64,000 nucleotides of DNA from IMG/VR virus record IMGVR_UViG_3300042296_000700, positions 1 through 64,000 of that record, one strand, 5' to 3'. The DNA is from a virus. Position 1 is the first letter of the stretch; every line of letters starts with the position of its first letter. The notes beneath the pieces are model-generated. The model made no database searches, was not told the DNA's origin, and worked only from the letters and a program-made list of their open reading frames with translations. The position numbers and the translations under genes were made by a program. Shown here in pieces: positions 1,143 through 19,255 of the stretch.

Positions 1143-1484
1143 TCAGATGAAGTGTTTTACGATTGCTGTTACTGCAAGGATTATCCATGCAACATTGAAC
1201 AGGATGATGGTCGGAAGGGTTTTTTTGGTGGATGTCCAGATGAGGCTGAGGCTTGATGCGACTGCGAAGATGTATAGCCACCAGATTTGTTTGCCGAACA
1301 GCAAGCCAGGGAAAATGATTACAATTTTGGTTGCGAATCCCCATGCTTCTACGGTGTTTACGCGGTTCCAGTATGACTTGGATGACATCGTTTTGACGGC
1401 ACCAATGATTTTGCTAAAAAATGTTGTTGCGACCGTTTCAATGTTTGGTTGTGTTGTGCCGTAACGCTTGATTGGTGTGTTCAT
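1143..1484 (-). CDS. Small integral membrane protein
   Basis: From the chosen start (MNTPIKRY) the protein has 113 residues with three predicted membrane segments in its second half: around KIVIIFPGLLFG, WWLYIFAVASSLSLIW and PTIILFNVAWIILAVTAI. The start at 1484 is preceded by GGAGG with a 10-base spacer and overlaps the stop of the CoA-transferase gene as ATGA. A start at 1514 is possible but less likely. The arrangement loosely resembles small transporter fragments, but I cannot assign a function. Confidence 0.65.
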   Translation of the reverse strand: MNTPIKRYGTTQPNIETVATTFFSKIIGAVKTMSSKSYWNRVNTVEAWGFATKIVIIFPGLLFGKQIWWLYIFAVASSLSLIWTSTKKTLPTIILFNVAWIILAVTAIVKHFI

Positions 1485-2626
1485 CTTGTTATTTCCTCCG
1501 CTAGTGGTGCCCAATATCCTAGCGAGTCTAGTATTTCTCCTGTGTGTTCGCCATGCATCGGTGCGTGGCTACTTGTTGTGAGTGGTGTTTCTGAGAACAT
1601 TGGTGCTTGTCGTGCTTCTCTAATCATCAAGTTTGCGCTTGGGTGTGTTCGGTCAATGAAAACTGCGTTTGTTTTAATTTGTTCATTATTTGGCAGGTCT
1701 TTGACGTCAGCAAAAATTGCTGCTGGTAAACCGTTTATGATGGCTGCTTGTACTTCTGCGACTGTCAGTTGTTTTGCGGCTTCATCTGTGATTTCAATGA
1801 GTGCTGGGGCGTTGTTGAATCGTGCCCCGATTGAACTAAAGCGTTCGTCTTCAAGGATTTCTGGAATGCATAATGTTCGTGCCCATATTTCAAACTCTTC
1901 GTCTGATGCTGGGGTCACTGCGCAGTATCCATCTTTGAGTGTGATGGTGCGGTAGTACTTATCTATTGTTGGTGAACGGTTGGTGTCTTCGTCTAGGAGT
2001 GCTGCGTCCATTCCGAGGTCTTGCCACATGAAGTGGGCTGCGACATCAAGCATGGATATGGAAATGTACTGTCCGCCGCACAGCCCGCGCTCTCGTGCGA
2101 ATAGTGCACCGAGCACTGATTGGGCTACGACGTGTGCTGTAACTTTGTCGCATACGAGTTGATGTACTACTTCTGGCGGGTCGTTTTGTGCGTTGCCCAT
2201 ACCAGTCATTGCTTGAATCATGTTGTCGTACGCTTTATTGTTTTTGAGCGGTCCGAAGTTTCCAAATCCTAAAACGTGGACGTAGATGAGGTTTGGGAAT
2301 TTTTCTTTGATTTGGTCGTATCCGAACCCGAGTGATTCCATTACGTCTGGGCGAAAGTTGTGTATGAGTACGTCTGCTGCGCATATTAATTTTTCTACTA
2401 CTTCGCGACCTTTGACGCCTTTGGCGTTTACCGCTATTCCTTTTTTGCCTCTGTTGTTGAGTGCAAAGATGCCTGACATGCCGTTTTTGTTTGAGCCAAC
2501 GAACCGCATGAGGTCACATGAGTCTTTGGGTTCTATTTTGATTACTTCGGCACCGTAGTCAGCGAGGAGGCTTGCACCTAGCGGACCAGCAATCATTGTT
2601 GACATGTCAACTATTTTTATCCCCAT
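1481..2626 (-). CDS. CaiB/BaiF family (family III) CoA-transferase
   Basis: The protein (381 residues from MGIKIVDM) has the family's hallmark N-terminus, with MIAGPLGASLLADYGAEVIKIE for the CoA/Rossmann part, then HNFRPDVMESLGFGYD and a central AYDNMIQAMTGM. The Asp of that segment (about residue 134) matches the catalytic Asp of family III CoA-transferases. Known members move CoA between carboxylic acids or racemise acyl-CoAs; the substrate cannot be read from sequence. Length is close to the usual 380-420. The start is uncertain: ATGs at 2671 and 2734 are also in frame. It overlaps the next gene as ATGA, so it is embedded in the phage operon and is not contamination. Confidence 0.85.
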   Translation of the reverse strand: MGIKIVDMSTMIAGPLGASLLADYGAEVIKIEPKDSCDLMRFVGSNKNGMSGIFALNNRGKKGIAVNAKGVKGREVVEKLICAADVLIHNFRPDVMESLGFGYDQIKEKFPNLIYVHVLGFGNFGPLKNNKAYDNMIQAMTGMGNAQNDPPEVVHQLVCDKVTAHVVAQSVLGALFARERGLCGGQYISISMLDVAAHFMWQDLGMDAALLDEDTNRSPTIDKYYRTITLKDGYCAVTPASDEEFEIWARTLCIPEILEDERFSSIGARFNNAPALIEITDEAAKQLTVAEVQAAIINGLPAAIFADVKDLPNNEQIKTNAVFIDRTHPSANLMIREARQAPMFSETPLTTSSHAPMHGEHTGEILDSLGYWAPLAEEITR

Positions 2627-2651
2627 GAGTGGTGGATATTTTATTACTATA

Positions 2652-2933
2652 TTATGCAAAGTATGGTCCATCAACATCAAAGACAATGATTGGTGTTTGC
2701 TCGCCAATGTATGCACCGATGCAGTTGAACTCAATGTATTCTTCTGCGTCGTCGTAATTCATTCCGTCACGAAACATTAGAGTGTCTATCATTTTTTTGT
2801 GTGAGTAAACAGCGAGTGTCGGCTGGTTCATTGGGCGTGTGAATCCGATGAATGCTTCATCAAATCCGTCCATTAATAGGATTGATTCGTCCATTGCTTT
2901 GAATGCCGAATCTATTTGTTCGCGTGTAGGCAT
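2652..2933 (-). CDS. Hypothetical phage protein
   Basis: A 93-residue acidic protein starting MPTREQIDSAFKAMDES, with a good AGGAG ribosome binding site ahead of the ATG. It is rich in short hydrophobic strands (TLAVYSHKKMIDTLMF, TPIIVFDVDGPYF). I do not recognise the family. It sits between the ParB-like gene and the CoA-transferase gene. Confidence 0.65.
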   Translation of the reverse strand: MPTREQIDSAFKAMDESILLMDGFDEAFIGFTRPMNQPTLAVYSHKKMIDTLMFRDGMNYDDAEEYIEFNCIGAYIGEQTPIIVFDVDGPYFA

Positions 2934-12525: not shown

Positions 12526-13641
12526 TTACACCCTACGAAATACCTTGTCAAGCCCTGTGATAGATATTGACTTGGATGCTTTCGGCATTGTTCTAATCTT
12601 TCGGAACATGTCCTTATTAAGACCGCGCAATATGAACTTGGAAGCGGGAAACATAGCAAAAGCGGACGGAGATATTGCCCCTTCTGACTCAATGGTCTGT
12701 TTCTTGGCGGCTCCCAGAAGTTTTAGAAAAGCGTCCAAATGCTCCACGTTCTCAAATAGTGGTGTTGGTGCGACGATGTCCCCTTTGTCTGTATATCTAC
12801 GCCCTACGGCGGTTTTGAAGCCCCCTGCGACCAGTTTGGACTTGTCGCCTCCTGCTTCCTTGAGGAGCATCTTGTAGCGGTCTTCAATGTCTGCCAGAAA
12901 GTTCTTTCTGCCTGAATCTGACTTGAAGTTGTAGCCCGCTCGTGACCATGTATAGATGCCATCATCCAGCCCAGCGTTCAGATGAATTGACTTCACGCCC
13001 AGAGCCTCATATTTTGATTCTGCTTTTATGCCAAAATCTGCGCCGATACCTTTTCCTTGGTGCTCTTTGTCAATGCGTAAAATCTCATGGTACGCATGTG
13101 GCTCAAAACGGTCATTTGACCCGTCAAGATAAATGTGGCGTTCAAAAATGCCAACTTTTTTACCGTCAGAGTCAACAATTTTGCCACCTATTTGAATATA
13201 GGGACTACTGCTGGATTCATCTGCGACACGCATGTTTCTTTGACCCCAAATTCTTACGCCCTCGTCATCTCCCCAGAGTTCTGCAGAGTAACTACCGTCG
13301 TCTCCGAGACCCTTCATTTCAAAGATGCTTTTAGCCCAATCGCGAGTAATTTTTTTGGCTGCGCGTGAGTCTCCTTTGTCTGCCCTGAGGAGTATCTCCA
13401 GCATTTTTTCGTTGGAATGCATTGGTGGTTTTGTTTCTTTTACGGCTTTGATTATCCGTTTTTCATCAGCATCTAGTTGCTTTTTTTTAACATCATTCCA
13501 AAGTTTTTTGATGTCATCTTTAGCGTTCGCTATAGGGGCGGGAACGTTGTCTTCTCCGCTCGGTCCAGTGACAAAACCGTCTCCGTCGCCGTCTTCTTCG
13601 CCTAAGGCACCGATAGGTTTCCCGAGTATTTTGATAGACAT
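12526..13641 (-). CDS. GNAT-like acetyltransferase-domain protein
   Basis: The protein (371 residues from MSIKILGKPIGAL) begins with an acidic EEDGDGDGFVTGPSGED segment that resembles an EF-hand-like loop. Its middle carries a GNAT core: HEILRIDKEHQGKGIGADFG, where QGKGIG matches the acetyl-CoA motif R/QxxGxG/A, then LGVKSIHLNAGLDDGIYTWSRAGYNF. The latter part is shared with the C-terminus of the giant protein at 23858. An acetyl-CoA-dependent transferase is likely; the target is unknown. The longer in-frame start at 13704 would translate through a terminator-like hairpin, so I chose 13641. Confidence 0.65.
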   Translation of the reverse strand: MSIKILGKPIGALGEEDGDGDGFVTGPSGEDNVPAPIANAKDDIKKLWNDVKKKQLDADEKRIIKAVKETKPPMHSNEKMLEILLRADKGDSRAAKKITRDWAKSIFEMKGLGDDGSYSAELWGDDEGVRIWGQRNMRVADESSSSPYIQIGGKIVDSDGKKVGIFERHIYLDGSNDRFEPHAYHEILRIDKEHQGKGIGADFGIKAESKYEALGVKSIHLNAGLDDGIYTWSRAGYNFKSDSGRKNFLADIEDRYKMLLKEAGGDKSKLVAGGFKTAVGRRYTDKGDIVAPTPLFENVEHLDAFLKLLGAAKKQTIESEGAISPSAFAMFPASKFILRGLNKDMFRKIRTMPKASKSISITGLDKVFRRV

Positions 13642-13677
13642 AAAGAAGCCCTCACCTGATTTGGCGAGGGCTTCTTT
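13642..13677 (-). terminator. Terminator-like hairpin at the start of the GNAT-like gene
   Basis: AAAGAAGCCCTC and GAGGGCTTCTTT form a 12-bp arm hairpin with a GC-rich core and a T-rich 3' side, 44 bases after the stop of the deacetylase-like gene. The GAGGG in its 3' arm is also the only Shine-Dalgarno for the start at 13641, so the hairpin could hide that site as well as end transcription. Confidence 0.6.
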
Positions 13678-13720
13678 TCCAGTCTTTTTGCGGAATGAAC
13701 CCATCCCTTTATTTTAGTGC

Positions 13721-14593
13721 TTAGATACCTGCGGATGTCCAAGTTTCAATAGTAATCCTGTGCCAGTCAACAACATCTTCCATTGTTTTCTTGCCCCATG
13801 TGTAGCCTCCTGCGAGGGCAAATACTGCTGGGGTGTCTGCAATGAAATCACTGACTGCTTTTTCGCGCCAAATAATGTCGCTTAGTGATACACCACTGTT
13901 GAGAGGGTCCATGCCTGCGTTGTAGATAATTAGGTCAAATGCGTCAAGTTCTCCTGCGTAATTTAACGCTTTGCCAATCTCTTGACGGTAATCCTGATGT
14001 CCTGCGTAAGTAATGCTACTTTCGCCTTCGGGTTCGTAGGTGTCAAATGCCGCGCAAGTTACGTCAACCTGTACAACCGACGGTAGGTGTGCGTTGATAA
14101 TGTCCCACGTTCCACCGCCTGCGTGTGCGTCAAAGTCAAGAATAAGAACGCGAGGTGCGTCCATTTCCACTGCTTGCCGTGCCGCGACTGCTAGACCGTT
14201 GATTGTGCAGAAACCCTTACCACTGTTCCTGTTGGCATGGTGGAGACCAGATGAGAGACTTCCTGCTCTGGTGTCTTCGCTGAGTGCTGCCGTAGTTGCT
14301 GCAACTAGACCAGTGCTATGGGCTAACGCCATAGTCCAAATTCCTTCATCCCAGTCAAATCCTTGAGATTCCGCCATGCTGAGTGGTGTCCCTGTCTGTA
14401 CTGCATTTACGTATTTTTTGTCGTGGACAGTGGGGAGTAGGTTGTAGGACTTTTCTGTAAACAGAATGGGGTCGTAGATGATTAAGTCGTCAATAGGGTT
14501 GGTTGCTAGTGATTCCCTGATGTGCTTGGATTTGCGAGTTGTGTCGTATGCGTATTTTGCCGCTACGTAATCGTCGTTGTAAAAAAGTTTCAT
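13721..14593 (-). CDS. Histone deacetylase/acetylpolyamine amidohydrolase superfamily enzyme
   Basis: From MKLFYNDDYV the protein has 290 residues and the family's key motifs in order: HDKKYVNAV, paired histidines 118-119 in SSGLHHANRN, GKGFCTINGLAVAA, and the zinc site ILDFDAHAGGGT (D153, D155, H157). NAGMDPLNSG corresponds to the second Asp region. Bacterial members deacetylate acetyl-lysine, polyamines or small metabolites. The substrate here is unknown. A start at 14644 is possible, but the AGAAAGAAC site favours 14593. It is followed by the hairpin at 13642-13677. Confidence 0.85.
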   Translation of the reverse strand: MKLFYNDDYVAAKYAYDTTRKSKHIRESLATNPIDDLIIYDPILFTEKSYNLLPTVHDKKYVNAVQTGTPLSMAESQGFDWDEGIWTMALAHSTGLVAATTAALSEDTRAGSLSSGLHHANRNSGKGFCTINGLAVAARQAVEMDAPRVLILDFDAHAGGGTWDIINAHLPSVVQVDVTCAAFDTYEPEGESSITYAGHQDYRQEIGKALNYAGELDAFDLIIYNAGMDPLNSGVSLSDIIWREKAVSDFIADTPAVFALAGGYTWGKKTMEDVVDWHRITIETWTSAGI

Positions 14594-14652
14594 GTTTGTT
14601 CTTTCTAGTAGTTGTTTGCTATATATTACACTAATTATTGACAAATGTCAAA

Positions 14653-15135
14653 TTAGAGGTTTTGGTGCCTATGTGCGTAAAGAATGGGTATTAGGTCTAA
14701 TTTGAAAATCTTTTCCAGATGCTTGACAATGAGACGGTTCGGGATGAAGTCTCGCTTGCTGTCACGTCCCCAGTGTTCTTCCACTGGCTGTTCGTCTCGT
14801 AGCGTTATGAACGCATCTTCGGGCTCTACGCCACGAGCGATTGCAATTCCCCATGCTGTAGAGGTTGACCGTGACATGCCTGCGTGGCAGTGGACTAGGA
14901 GGTCATCTTTGTCCATTCCCCAGTTAATCATCTGCTCAATCTGTTTTAAGGTTGGCGCACGGTTGCCTATTGTGGTGTCGCCAAATTCAACGACAAGGTG
15001 CTGTGGGTGGTTCCAGTTGACTTCTGACGCCAACGGTCCTGCTGTGATGATTGCTGAAAATTCGTTTTTCCATGCTTCTGCTTCTTTGATGTTGCCAATT
15101 ACTGGTAGTGTGACGTTTGTCATAAGTTCCTTCAT
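14653..15135 (-). CDS. Cys-based (tyrosine/dual-specificity-like) protein phosphatase
   Basis: A 160-residue protein with the phosphate-binding loop VHCHAGMSRST: His82, nucleophile Cys83, Arg89 and Ser90 fit HCx5R(S/T). VVEFGDTT upstream could supply the acidic side of the active site. Such enzymes remove phosphate from Tyr, Ser/Thr or small substrates. An AGGAGGCACA site gives a firm start. It is directly upstream of the deacetylase-like gene, so the two are likely cotranscribed. Confidence 0.85.
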   Translation of the reverse strand: MKELMTNVTLPVIGNIKEAEAWKNEFSAIITAGPLASEVNWNHPQHLVVEFGDTTIGNRAPTLKQIEQMINWGMDKDDLLVHCHAGMSRSTSTAWGIAIARGVEPEDAFITLRDEQPVEEHWGRDSKRDFIPNRLIVKHLEKIFKLDLIPILYAHRHQNL

Positions 15136-15200
15136 TGTGCCTCCTATGGCTAGTATTGTTATGGGAACACTTTACATTGTTTTGCAGGGGAATGCAACCC

Positions 15201-15266
15201 CTACCTATTGAGCCACAACATGAATAGGCAAAGCGCCACAAAAGCAACGACAACTATAAAGAACAT
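15201..15266 (-). CDS. 21-residue single-span membrane peptide
   Basis: The short frame MFFIVVVAFVALCLFMLWL (then NR, stop) is almost entirely a transmembrane helix. It is preceded by GAGGTGATTTT, a strong ribosome binding site at good spacing, and is the first frame of the minus operon. It resembles other tiny phage or bacterial membrane peptides. Function unknown; the evidence is the site plus the hydrophobicity. Confidence 0.55.
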   Translation of the reverse strand: MFFIVVVAFVALCLFMLWLNR

Positions 15267-16634: not shown

Positions 16635-18560
16635 ATGCCTATTCTTGAACAATCTTTTGTTGACTCTTACAAAACCAAAACCCCGCCTTGGGGATTCGGT
16701 GGTCTAGGCGAAATCGTTTATCTACGCACATACAGTCGTCCTGTAGAAGGAACAGACCGTAACGAAACATGGGTGGAAACAGTTCAGCGTGTTATTGAAG
16801 GCGCAGTAGGAATTGGTGTTCCATACACACAGCAACAAGCAGAGACTTTGTTTGACCACATGTTCTATTTGCGTTGCTCTATGTCGGGTCGTGCACTCTG
16901 GCAACTTGGCACACCACTCGTAAAGCAGTTCAACGGAACATCGCTAAACAACTGTTACTTCACAAACATTGAAAAAGTTGAAGACTTTGAACTTCTGTTT
17001 GATTACCTGATGCTCGGTGGTGGAGTTGGGTTCTCTGTTGAGCGTTCTAAAATTCATGACCTTCCTAAAATAAAAGCAGGAGTAACAGTCACACATGAGC
17101 GCACTAATGATGCAGACATCATTGTTCCTGACTCACGCCAAGGCTGGCGTCGCCTACTTCACTCGGTACTGAAGTCGTACTTTGAGACAGGAAAGTCCTT
17201 CACGTATTCCACGATTCTTGTTCGTGAATTTGGTGCTCGTCTAAAGACGTTCGGCGGAACTGCTTCTGGTCCTGGTTCGCTCATTGACGGAATTGAAGAC
17301 ATCTGCAAGGTGTTGGATAATCGTGCAGGAAAGAAGTTGCGCTCTATTGACGTTTTGGATATTTGCAATATCATCGGGCGAATTGTTGTCTCTGGTTCAT
17401 CGCGCCGTTCAGCACAAATTGCAATCGGCGACCCTGACGATGTTCTTTTCCTTCGTGCAAAGAACTGGGGAAGCGGAGAGATTCCAGCATGGCGCGCCAA
17501 CTCCAATAACAGTATTTACGCCGACTATTACGACCATATTCTTCCCGAACTATGGAAGGGCTATCAGGGCAACGGCGAACCTTACGGTTTACTTAACCGT
17601 CGTCTTTCACGCAAGTTTGGTCGCATCGGCGAAGCACGTCCAGACAACTCAATTGAAGGATTCAACCCATGTGCAGAAATTGCTCTTGGTGATGGAGAGT
17701 CTTGCAATCTTGCAACACTGTTCCTCCCGAACATTGAATCGTATGAGCAGTTTGTAGAAGTCTCAGAATTGCTGTACATCTGCCAGAAGCAAATTACTCG
17801 CATGGATTACCCATACGAAAAGACCACACAAATTGTTCGCAAAAACTCACGGCTCGGACAGTCAATCACAGGGATACTTCAAGCCAATGAAGAACAACTG
17901 TCATGGCTCAAGAAGGGCTACGAGGCTCTTGACGCATACGATGTGGCGTATTCCGAAGCAAATGGTTTCCCTCGTTCCGTGCGTCTCACAACAGTGCAAC
18001 CATCAGGAACACTCTCATTGCTGCCAGGTATCACGCCAGGTATCCATCCAGCGTATGCTCGGTTCTACACACGCCGCGTGCGTTTCAGTGCTGCTGACAA
18101 ACTTGTAGACGCATGTCGCAAGCGTGGCTACAAAGTTCAATGGGAAATCGGTCTTGATGGACGCGAAGACCATACTAAGTATGTAGTTGACTTCCCTTGC
18201 ATGTCTCCAGAGAACGCCGTTCTCGCCAAAGACATGACAGCAGTAGACCAACTTGAATGGGTCAAAAAGATGCAGGCGGAATGGGCAGACAATGCTGTTT
18301 CGGTAACCGTGTACTATCGCAAGGAAGAACTTGACGAGATTCGTGCATGGCTTGCAGCGAACTACGACACAAGCATCAAGTCAGTATCTTTCCTTCTGCA
18401 CGCAGACCACAACTTCCCACTTCCCCCATACGAGGAAATCACAGAAGATGAATACAAGAAGGCAGTCTCCAAGATTGACTTCACTATTCAAATGCAATCC
18501 TCTGGAAATGACGTAATTGACTTGGATGATTGCGCAACGGGGGCGTGCCCTGTAAAGTAA
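16635..18560 (+). CDS. Class II (adenosylcobalamin-dependent) ribonucleotide reductase
   Basis: The 641-residue protein carries the radical-site set in the exact spacing of the monomeric Lactobacillus leichmannii enzyme: C107 (SLNNCYF), then C346-A-E348 and C357 in FNPCAEIALGDGESCNLATL. The C-terminal shuttle pair is five apart in CATGAC. It converts ribonucleoside triphosphates to deoxy forms without oxygen, using vitamin B12 coenzyme and a dithiol donor. The thioredoxin at 39257 could be that donor. GGGGGG precedes the ATG at 16635; the in-frame ATG at 16623 is less likely. Confidence 0.94.
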   Translation: MPILEQSFVDSYKTKTPPWGFGGLGEIVYLRTYSRPVEGTDRNETWVETVQRVIEGAVGIGVPYTQQQAETLFDHMFYLRCSMSGRALWQLGTPLVKQFNGTSLNNCYFTNIEKVEDFELLFDYLMLGGGVGFSVERSKIHDLPKIKAGVTVTHERTNDADIIVPDSRQGWRRLLHSVLKSYFETGKSFTYSTILVREFGARLKTFGGTASGPGSLIDGIEDICKVLDNRAGKKLRSIDVLDICNIIGRIVVSGSSRRSAQIAIGDPDDVLFLRAKNWGSGEIPAWRANSNNSIYADYYDHILPELWKGYQGNGEPYGLLNRRLSRKFGRIGEARPDNSIEGFNPCAEIALGDGESCNLATLFLPNIESYEQFVEVSELLYICQKQITRMDYPYEKTTQIVRKNSRLGQSITGILQANEEQLSWLKKGYEALDAYDVAYSEANGFPRSVRLTTVQPSGTLSLLPGITPGIHPAYARFYTRRVRFSAADKLVDACRKRGYKVQWEIGLDGREDHTKYVVDFPCMSPENAVLAKDMTAVDQLEWVKKMQAEWADNAVSVTVYYRKEELDEIRAWLAANYDTSIKSVSFLLHADHNFPLPPYEEITEDEYKKAVSKIDFTIQMQSSGNDVIDLDDCATGACPVK

Positions 18561-18565
18561 GGGGC

Positions 18566-19255
18566 ATGGCTCACGAACACATAGTTATAGTTTCATATCC
18601 ACGTAGTGGCTCAACCATTATTCAGCGAGTCTTGAATAAGGCTGAAGGAACTCTGGTTAAGGGTGAAACAATCGGCGCTATCAACCATTTAGCGGAGTTT
18701 GTCCACCTGATTGAGGACGTACGCCGTGATGTGGCTCCGCTATTGGATATGCCATCTAGTGATGACCGCAATCCAATGTTCGGGTATGAGGACTTCAATA
18801 TTGATGTTGTTATGGACAATCTCCGTAACGCATTCACTCACGGAGTGCTCAGCATGCCAGAAGGCATCCATAGGCTCGGATGGAAAGAGAACTTCATTTC
18901 CCCGTTAACTTTGGGTCATCAGAAGGCAACAAAAACCTTGCAGTTCATTCAGCGGCTACTACCGAACACGAAGTTTATTTTCAATGTTCGTTCTCCTGAG
19001 GTCACTGCAAAAAGCGCCGTCTGGCGAACCCAGTTAAATCCAGTTGAAAAGATTGCCGAATTTAAAGACTGGATTCACAGCGTGCACAATTCAGAGATAC
19101 TGGGTAGCGCAAATACCCTCCTCCTTGACTACGAGGAATGGAACAACAACCCAGAACATCTTCAGATTGCTCTTGCGCGTTTTGGAATATTCATACCAAA
19201 AGAAGATGTAAAACTTATTCTTGATGAGCAATTGACCCACTTAGATAATTGGTAA
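18566..19255 (+). CDS. Sulfotransferase family protein
   Basis: The N-terminus IVIVSYPRSGSTIIQRVLN is the phosphosulfate-binding loop (PRSGST) of PAPS-dependent sulfotransferases. FIFNVRSPEVTAKSAVWRT matches the second (3'-phosphate) region, followed by LLLDYEEWNNNPEHL near the end. Length 229 is at the short end for the family. The enzyme would move sulfate from PAPS to an alcohol or amine; the acceptor is unknown. GGGG precedes ATG 18566, five bases after the ribonucleotide reductase stop. Confidence 0.8.
   Translation: MAHEHIVIVSYPRSGSTIIQRVLNKAEGTLVKGETIGAINHLAEFVHLIEDVRRDVAPLLDMPSSDDRNPMFGYEDFNIDVVMDNLRNAFTHGVLSMPEGIHRLGWKENFISPLTLGHQKATKTLQFIQRLLPNTKFIFNVRSPEVTAKSAVWRTQLNPVEKIAEFKDWIHSVHNSEILGSANTLLLDYEEWNNNPEHLQIALARFGIFIPKEDVKLILDEQLTHLDNW

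What the first reader, a model, noticed from the sequence alone, without database searches (positions are those of the whole stretch)
13721..15266. Deacetylase, phosphatase and tiny membrane peptide in one operon
A zinc deacetylase-superfamily enzyme with intact motifs is rare in phage genomes. Here it follows a phosphatase and a 21-residue membrane peptide, all in the same direction without terminators between. Co-expression suggests a joint role, possibly on membrane or polyamine metabolism.
Basis: partly seen in the sequence, partly recalled or inferred. Interest (0 to 1): 0.65.

Follow-up and report, generated by a model that had tools for sequence, protein, structure and literature searches.

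The report
Phage phosphatase–deacylase gene pair
An uncultured phage that probably infects actinobacteria carries a phosphatase gene directly before a zinc deacetylase-type gene, a pairing shared by many uncultured phages and by bacterial gene clusters thought to remove ADP-ribose marks, which suggests a modification-removing cassette used during infection.

Summary
On the minus strand lie a 21-residue hydrophobic ORF, a DSP-type phosphatase with an intact HCX5R motif, and an HDAC-fold enzyme with every catalytic residue intact. No terminator separates them. Promoter-like sequences lie in both gaps, so a single transcript is unproven.

The trio recurs in phages 66-71% identical. The phosphatase–deacylase pair is far wider: 33 of 80 viral loci (21 of 58 after removing near-copies). 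It is not obligate, because either gene also occurs alone.

The unexpected result concerns bacterial relatives. The same deacylase subfamily sits beside other DSP phosphatases, ADP-ribosylglycohydrolases, NrtR, ARPP-1, vWA and TY-Chap3. These are the parts of the 'ARG-centric' ADP-ribose-erasing systems predicted in 2022; that section of the paper does not name this enzyme. In 298 Acidimicrobiales genomes, 7 of 15 deacylase loci lie within 2.7 kb of an ADP-ribosylglycohydrolase domain (about 0.02 expected).

One betaproteobacterial branch sits in PotABCD polyamine-uptake operons, so a polyamine role is not excluded. The window enzyme, however, lacks the ApaH specificity loop and the acidic residue of that branch. 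No evidence supports a membrane role. The substrate is unknown; I favour an eraser pair.

The parts
15201..15266 (-). 21-aa hydrophobic ORF MFFIVVVAFVALCLFMLWLNR, plausible single-pass membrane micropeptide
   Evidence: AGCGAGGTGATTTT upstream of ATG; identical in L002, 19/21 in L003; counterpart MVAIVAVMILVCLALIWLNE at the same place in L004 and a similar one in L005/L006; not seen upstream of the phosphatase in other phages
15167..15197 (-). conserved promoter-like sequence TTGCAT-N17-TAAAGT before the phosphatase
   Evidence: same spacing and letters in L004-L006; one exact hit in the window, 0.01 expected for the long form. Function not shown
14653..15135 (-). DSP-type cysteine phosphatase, 160 aa, HCHAGMSRS
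   Evidence: dN/dS 0.04-0.06; AGGAGG ribosome-binding site
14623..14651 (-). promoter-like TTGACA-N17-TAATAT overlapping the palindrome TTGACATTTGTCAA, before the deacetylase
   Evidence: strict pattern 5 hits in the window vs 0.95 expected; palindrome unique in the window; present in L002/L003, absent in L004-L006
13721..14593 (-). HDAC-fold zinc deacylase, 290 aa; all catalytic residues intact
   Evidence: PF00850 2e-24; invariant H118 H119 D155 H157 D229 Y264; model pLDDT 85, pTM 0.89; V. cholerae HdaH Z 31.1
12526..13704 (-). 392-aa protein: N-terminal DGDGDG motif region and a GNAT-like segment (about residues 177-260, QGKGIG motif)
   Evidence: weak Pfam Acetyltransf_1 E=0.02; conserved G217/G219/G221 and position after the deacylase in L110, L111, L112

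Best explanation
The conserved unit is a two-enzyme eraser cassette: a DSP-type cysteine phosphatase followed by a zinc-dependent HDAC-fold deacylase. I propose that the phage took it from the enzyme pool of bacterial ADP-ribose/modification-erasing conflict operons. During early or middle infection it would strip phosphate and acyl marks from host or phage macromolecules, undoing a host response or resetting host proteins for phage use. The deacylase would activate water with Zn2+ (D155/H157/D229), the His118-His119 pair and Tyr264; the phosphatase would work through a phospho-cysteine on Cys83. Shown: genes, motifs, folds, purifying selection, the conserved pair, and the bacterial link to ADP-ribosylglycohydrolase systems. 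Inferred: catalytic activity, substrate class, timing, and the role in infection. The small hydrophobic peptide is probably a local accessory, and the downstream GNAT-like protein an optional partner.
For: Catalytic residues intact and under purifying selection. The phosphatase lies immediately upstream on the same strand in 33 of 80 viral loci, 21 of 58 after removing near-copies. A different DSP family sits directly before the same deacylase subfamily in Acidimicrobiia (L038, L039, L043, L085, L093, L102, L104, L190-L192, L194, L196, L203). Bacterial neighbours are ADP-ribosylglycohydrolase, Macro, NrtR, ARPP-1 and TY-Chap3, each above its Pfam cut-off, plus vWA-like proteins, which fall below it. 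These are the parts of the ARG-centric systems of PMC9503650 section 3.8. In 298 Acidimicrobiales genomes, 7 of 15 deacylase loci lie within 2.7 kb of PF03747, 0.02 expected, Poisson P 4e-16, or 6 with P 9e-14 without the centre genome. The closest solved folds are V. cholerae HdaH and a bacterial HDAC11-like enzyme (Z 31.1 and 28.9, against 27.1 for the best ApaH).
Against: Either gene occurs without the other: six phage contigs carrying this phosphatase family, up to 145 kb, have no deacylase match, and 14 phage records with the deacylase, including the E3 record, have no match to this phosphatase family. Three of the seven ARG-linked loci are in one genome. No ADP-ribosylglycohydrolase, Macro or NUDIX family appeared among 48 other window-phage proteins scanned. 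A betaproteobacterial branch points to polyamines instead. No substrate has been tested.
Confidence: 0.4

Rival explanations
1. The deacylase is an acetylpolyamine amidohydrolase: it frees spermidine or putrescine from the inactive N-acetyl form for phage DNA packaging and translation. The phosphatase is unrelated.
For: Seven betaproteobacterial members of the subfamily lie at the end of, or inside, PotD/F-PotA-PotB-PotC operons, in several cases overlapping the last permease gene by 4 nt; in L058 a glutamine-synthetase/gamma-glutamylputrescine-synthetase-type gene and an aminotransferase follow. Giant-virus ApaH enzymes are proven polyamine deacetylases and phages carry spermidine N-acetyltransferases (PMC9992855).
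Against: PMC11532494 found bacterial polyamine deacetylase activity only in its cluster 4, marked by an extended L2 specificity loop that makes head-to-head dimers. The window enzyme is 290 aa with its second catalytic His at 119, against about 341 aa and His159 in M. ramosa ApaH, so it has no room for that loop. The Pot-linked branch has Glu three residues after the zinc Asp (DPFEGC/DPYEGC, 9 of 9); the window branch has DPLNSG. A dsDNA phage may still profit from free spermidine.
Confidence: 0.2
2. Both enzymes act on small ADP-ribose derivatives. The phosphatase removes a phosphomonoester such as ADP-ribose 1''-phosphate and the deacylase an acyl group such as O-acetyl-ADP-ribose, clearing signals or by-products of NAD-based defence.
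For: Strong association with ADP-ribosylglycohydrolase, NrtR sensor and Macro domains in bacteria. PMC9503650 predicts that rhodanese-type/DSP phosphatases process ADP-ribose products.
Against: Known HDAC-fold enzymes cleave N-acyl amides on extended chains; no member is known to take a nucleotide (general knowledge). The window phage shows none of the other ADP-ribose enzymes among the proteins scanned.
Confidence: 0.2
3. Two independent early accessory genes that happen to share a place. The deacylase alone acts on host proteins or a metabolite, and adjacency reflects inheritance of one phage module.
For: Each gene occurs alone in many phages. In L017/L018 the phosphatase stands in the same module without the deacylase, in L112 the reverse. 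Promoter-like sites separate them in the window.
Against: The pair recurs in several deep branches (7 changes needed for the viral paired label, at least 4 forced by well-supported branches) and with an unrelated DSP family in bacteria.
Confidence: 0.2

Closest known systems
Rhodococcus phage E3 gp202, 'putative histone deacetylase protein' (NC_021347)
   Same: Same deacylase subfamily, 45% identity over 97% of the query
   Different: No match to this phosphatase family in the 142,563-base record; lies before virion structural genes; has the DPHEDC loop
ARG-centric ADP-ribose-countering systems (Iyer, Burroughs, Aravind 2022, PMC9503650)
   Same: Bacterial relatives of the deacylase stand among ADP-ribosylglycohydrolase, DSP phosphatase, vWA, ARPP-1, TY-Chap3, NrtR and Macro proteins
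   Different: The paper's section on these systems does not name an HDAC-type enzyme; no other component was detected among the window phage proteins scanned
V. cholerae HdaH (cluster 5b) and bacterial HDAC11-like deacylases (PMC11532494)
   Same: Closest solved folds, Z 31.1 and 28.9, same catalytic residues
   Different: 23-25% identity; phage subfamily has DxDAH[CGA]GGGT instead of DxDVHHGDGT
Acetylpolyamine amidohydrolases (M. ramosa, M. subterrani, giant viruses; PMC9992855, PMC11532494)
   Same: Fold and catalytic residues; a betaproteobacterial branch of the phage subfamily sits in polyamine-uptake operons
   Different: Specificity/dimer loop and acidic gate not present in the window enzyme

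Membership tests
Classical Zn-dependent deacylase (HDAC, PF00850) | Pfam score above curated cut-off | tested here: met
   86.8 bits vs 27.9
Classical Zn-dependent deacylase (HDAC, PF00850) | His-His dyad, Asp/His/Asp zinc ligands, XGGY tyrosine | tested here: met
   H118 H119 D155 H157 D229 Y264 invariant in 9 sequences, motifs kept in most of 70 others
Classical Zn-dependent deacylase (HDAC, PF00850) | Arginase-deacetylase fold | tested here: met
   Model pLDDT 85; HdaH Z 31.1, rmsd 2.3 over 276 residues
Classical Zn-dependent deacylase (HDAC, PF00850) | Hydrolysis of an acyl amide | not testable with these tools
   needs an enzyme assay
Acetylpolyamine amidohydrolase (cluster 4 ApaH) | Extended L2 polyamine-specificity loop making head-to-head dimers (PMC11532494) | tested here: not met
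   290 aa and second catalytic His at 119, vs about 341 aa and His159 in M. ramosa ApaH; judged from length and numbering, not from a superposed loop
Acetylpolyamine amidohydrolase (cluster 4 ApaH) | Acidic gate near the zinc Asp (PEG of HDAC10, or Glu at Asp+3 in the Pot-linked branch) | tested here: not met
   window DPLNSG; Pot branch DPFEGC/DPYEGC in 9 of 9
Class IV / cluster 5 deacylase (HDAC11, VcHdaH) | Sequence cluster membership and extended foot pocket for long acyl chains | tested here: inconclusive
   nearest fold but 23-25% identity; pocket not examined
Dual-specificity phosphatase | HCX5R motif and conserved acid | tested here: met
   H82 C83 A85 G86 R89 S90 and D53 invariant in 15 sequences
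Dual-specificity phosphatase | DSP fold / profile similarity | tested here: met
   PDB profile hits 2e-7, fold Z 13.2; Pfam DSPc itself 23.7 bits, below cut-off 33.5
ARG-centric ADP-ribose system | ADP-ribosylglycohydrolase (PF03747) in the same locus | tested here: not met
   none next to the window genes nor among 48 other proteins of this phage scanned; met in bacterial relatives

The most novel reading that the evidence does not exclude
Phages of actinobacteria carry a reduced version of a bacterial ADP-ribose/modification-erasing conflict operon, a phosphatase plus an HDAC-type deacylase, and use it against the host's own modification-based response. The HDAC-type enzyme would be an unrecognised core enzyme of those bacterial systems.
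Probability: 0.3. Interest if true: 0.8.

Novelty: new variant of a known kind. Interest (0 to 1): 0.55.

Why it matters
If the link holds, zinc deacylases join ADP-ribose hydrolases and phosphatases as parts of bacterial conflict systems, and phages carry the deacylase-phosphatase part on its own. That would give an experimental handle on ARG-centric systems, which so far are predicted only from gene neighbourhoods. It would also make the long-open question of whether phages erase host protein modifications testable with two purified enzymes, possibly with E3 gp202 as a cultured model.

Tried and rejected
Membrane metabolism as the shared role: no lipid or membrane enzyme next to the pair in any related locus inspected; only the small peptide is hydrophobic. 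Obligate toxin-antitoxin-like pairing: rejected because each gene stands alone in many phages. Near-identical DNA in isolate phages: none. PHROGs: no family for the deacylase. NCBIfam: no model hits the deacylase. Papers on phage deacetylases of this kind: none found in the held library. Phage E3 gp202: no paper pairs it with deacetylase. Predicted viral structures: clear hits only to giant-virus HDAC/ApaH/arginase proteins. ADP-ribose or polyamine enzymes elsewhere in this phage: none named among 48 proteins scanned; structural and very small ORFs were not scanned. Mycothiol-like pathway (phosphatase, deacetylase, GNAT in order resembles MshA2-MshB-MshD): considered and dropped, because MshB has a different fold (general knowledge) and the subfamily is common in lineages without mycothiol.

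Full report
What is there. The window is the first 64 kb of a 107,127-base IMG/VR virus record. Two WhiB proteins, ThyX, a ParB-like protein, a class II ribonucleotide reductase and a capsid protein fit a tailed phage of actinobacteria. The nearest relatives of the deacylase in cellular bins are freshwater actinobacterial contigs, which may themselves be phage sequence. On the minus strand, in order, lie a 21-aa hydrophobic ORF (15266-15201), a phosphatase (15135-14653), a deacetylase-type enzyme (14593-13721) and a GNAT-like protein (13704-12526).

The deacetylase. Pfam Hist_deacetyl matches at 2e-24. The His pair, the three zinc ligands and the tyrosine are invariant in nine relatives down to 40% identity. 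The AlphaFold model (pLDDT 85, pTM 0.89) matches V. cholerae HdaH best (Z 31.1, rmsd 2.3 over 276 residues), then a Leptospira HDAC11-like enzyme (Z 28.9), then other HDACs and ApaH (about 27). The subfamily has its own signature, LSSGLHHA ... DxDAH[CGA]GGGT ... NAG(M/V)D ... AGGY, and no NCBIfam or PHROG model.

The phosphatase. It has HCHAGMSRS, with Cys83, Arg89 and Asp53 invariant in 15 sequences. Pfam DSPc is below its cut-off, but the profile finds solved DSPs at 2e-7 and the model (pLDDT 92.6) is a DSP (Z 13.2).

Transcription. No terminator-like site lies in the gaps. There is a 10-of-12 sigma-70-like site directly before the deacetylase and another, conserved in L004-L006, before the phosphatase. 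These are consensus matches only, but they make the single-operon claim open.

Conservation. The trio, peptide included, recurs in L002, L003 and in L004-L006 (66-71% identical enzymes). The pair goes much further: 33 of 80 viral deacylase loci have the phosphatase within 16 nt or overlapping, same strand. After removing near-copies it is 21 of 58 viral rows, and the label needs at least four changes on well-supported branches (FastTree only). It is not obligate: six phage contigs with this phosphatase family carry no deacylase match, and 14 deacylase phages, including the E3 record, have no match to this phosphatase family. Both empty answers come from searches without a built-in positive control. 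A GNAT-like gene follows the deacylase in L002, L003, L110, L111 and L112, so an acetyltransferase-like protein next to a deacylase may be part of the story; its GNAT match is weak.

Isolates versus metagenomes. Among 50,697 phage records only Rhodococcus phage E3 (two entries of one phage) has this subfamily. In IMG/VR 104 loci were confirmed and in bacterial genomes 241.

Bacterial context. In Acidimicrobiia the same subfamily stands next to a different DSP family, often with the phosphatase directly upstream (L038, L039, L043, L085, L093, L102, L104; and in the separate sample L190-L192, L194, L196, L203). Pfam names the other neighbours: ADP-ribosylglycohydrolase (L036, L038, L043, L049, L072), Macro (L072), NrtR (L038, L072), ARPP-1 (L034, L073) and TY-Chap3 (L030), all above cut-off; vWA-like (L042) below it. 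By sequence clustering, L028 and L035 also carry ARPP-1, and L037, L060, L076, L095 and L100 the vWA-like protein. These are the parts of the ARG-centric systems proposed in PMC9503650 to undo viral ADP-ribosylation; that section does not list an HDAC-type enzyme. A sample of 298 Acidimicrobiales genomes gave 15 deacylase loci and about 137 ADP-ribosylglycohydrolase hits. Seven deacylase loci lie within 2.7 kb of one, against 0.02 expected (P 4e-16; 9e-14 without the centre genome). Three of the seven are in one genome, so the events are fewer than the count. No control with other HDAC subfamilies was run.

Polyamines. Seven betaproteobacterial members lie at the end of PotD/F-PotA-PotB-PotC operons, L058 with polyamine-catabolism-type genes behind it. 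This supports a polyamine substrate for that branch. Its members carry Glu three residues after the zinc Asp; the window branch and the ARG-linked L038/L043 type do not. The window enzyme also has no room for the specificity loop that PMC11532494 found to mark bacterial polyamine deacetylases. The subfamily may therefore hold more than one specificity.

Mechanism. Shown: intact catalytic machinery, purifying selection, a recurring phosphatase-deacylase pair, and a bacterial setting of ADP-ribose erasure. Inferred: that the two phage enzymes are active and remove phosphate and acyl marks during early or middle infection. The early/middle placement rests on the replication-type genes downstream (ThyX, primase-like, WhiB). 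Rivals are polyamine release, clearing of ADP-ribose derivatives, and two unrelated accessory genes.

Limits. Gene calls in related loci are simple ORF choices, with starts often too long. Contigs may be fragments. The window phage's structural and smallest proteins were not scanned for ADP-ribose enzymes. No biochemical data exist for this subfamily in the sources searched.

Noticed in passing
window 1481-2734 (-): A 417-aa CoA-transferase family III protein (PF02515, E 1e-84), unusual for a tailed phage; the best hits among isolate phage records are under 30% identity over most of the protein and lie in poorly defined or very large records.
   Followed up: partly
window 12526-13704 (-): GNAT-like protein with an N-terminal (L)GKPIG...DGDGDGFxTG motif; in L016/L111 the motif occurs twice in one 590-aa protein. 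Possible calcium-binding or packaging tag.
   Followed up: partly
window 14638-14651: Perfect palindrome TTGACATTTGTCAA overlapping the -35-like box before the deacetylase; unique in the window; possible operator.
   Followed up: no
window 18530-19255 (+): Sulfotransferase-family protein (PF13469) beside the class II ribonucleotide reductase in this phage group.
   Followed up: no
L054, L057, L058, L059, L068, L070, L081: Unnamed HDAC-type gene at the end of PotABCD polyamine-uptake operons in betaproteobacteria; likely a new group of acetylpolyamine deacetylases.
   Followed up: partly
L143, L149, L156, L169, L175, L181: Deacylase directly after ThyX and a HAD-like gene in another group of phages, a different setting from the window.
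   Followed up: no
L032, L033, L035, L036: Metallo-beta-lactamase/RMMBL-type nuclease gene repeatedly near the deacylase in Acidimicrobiaceae.
   Followed up: no
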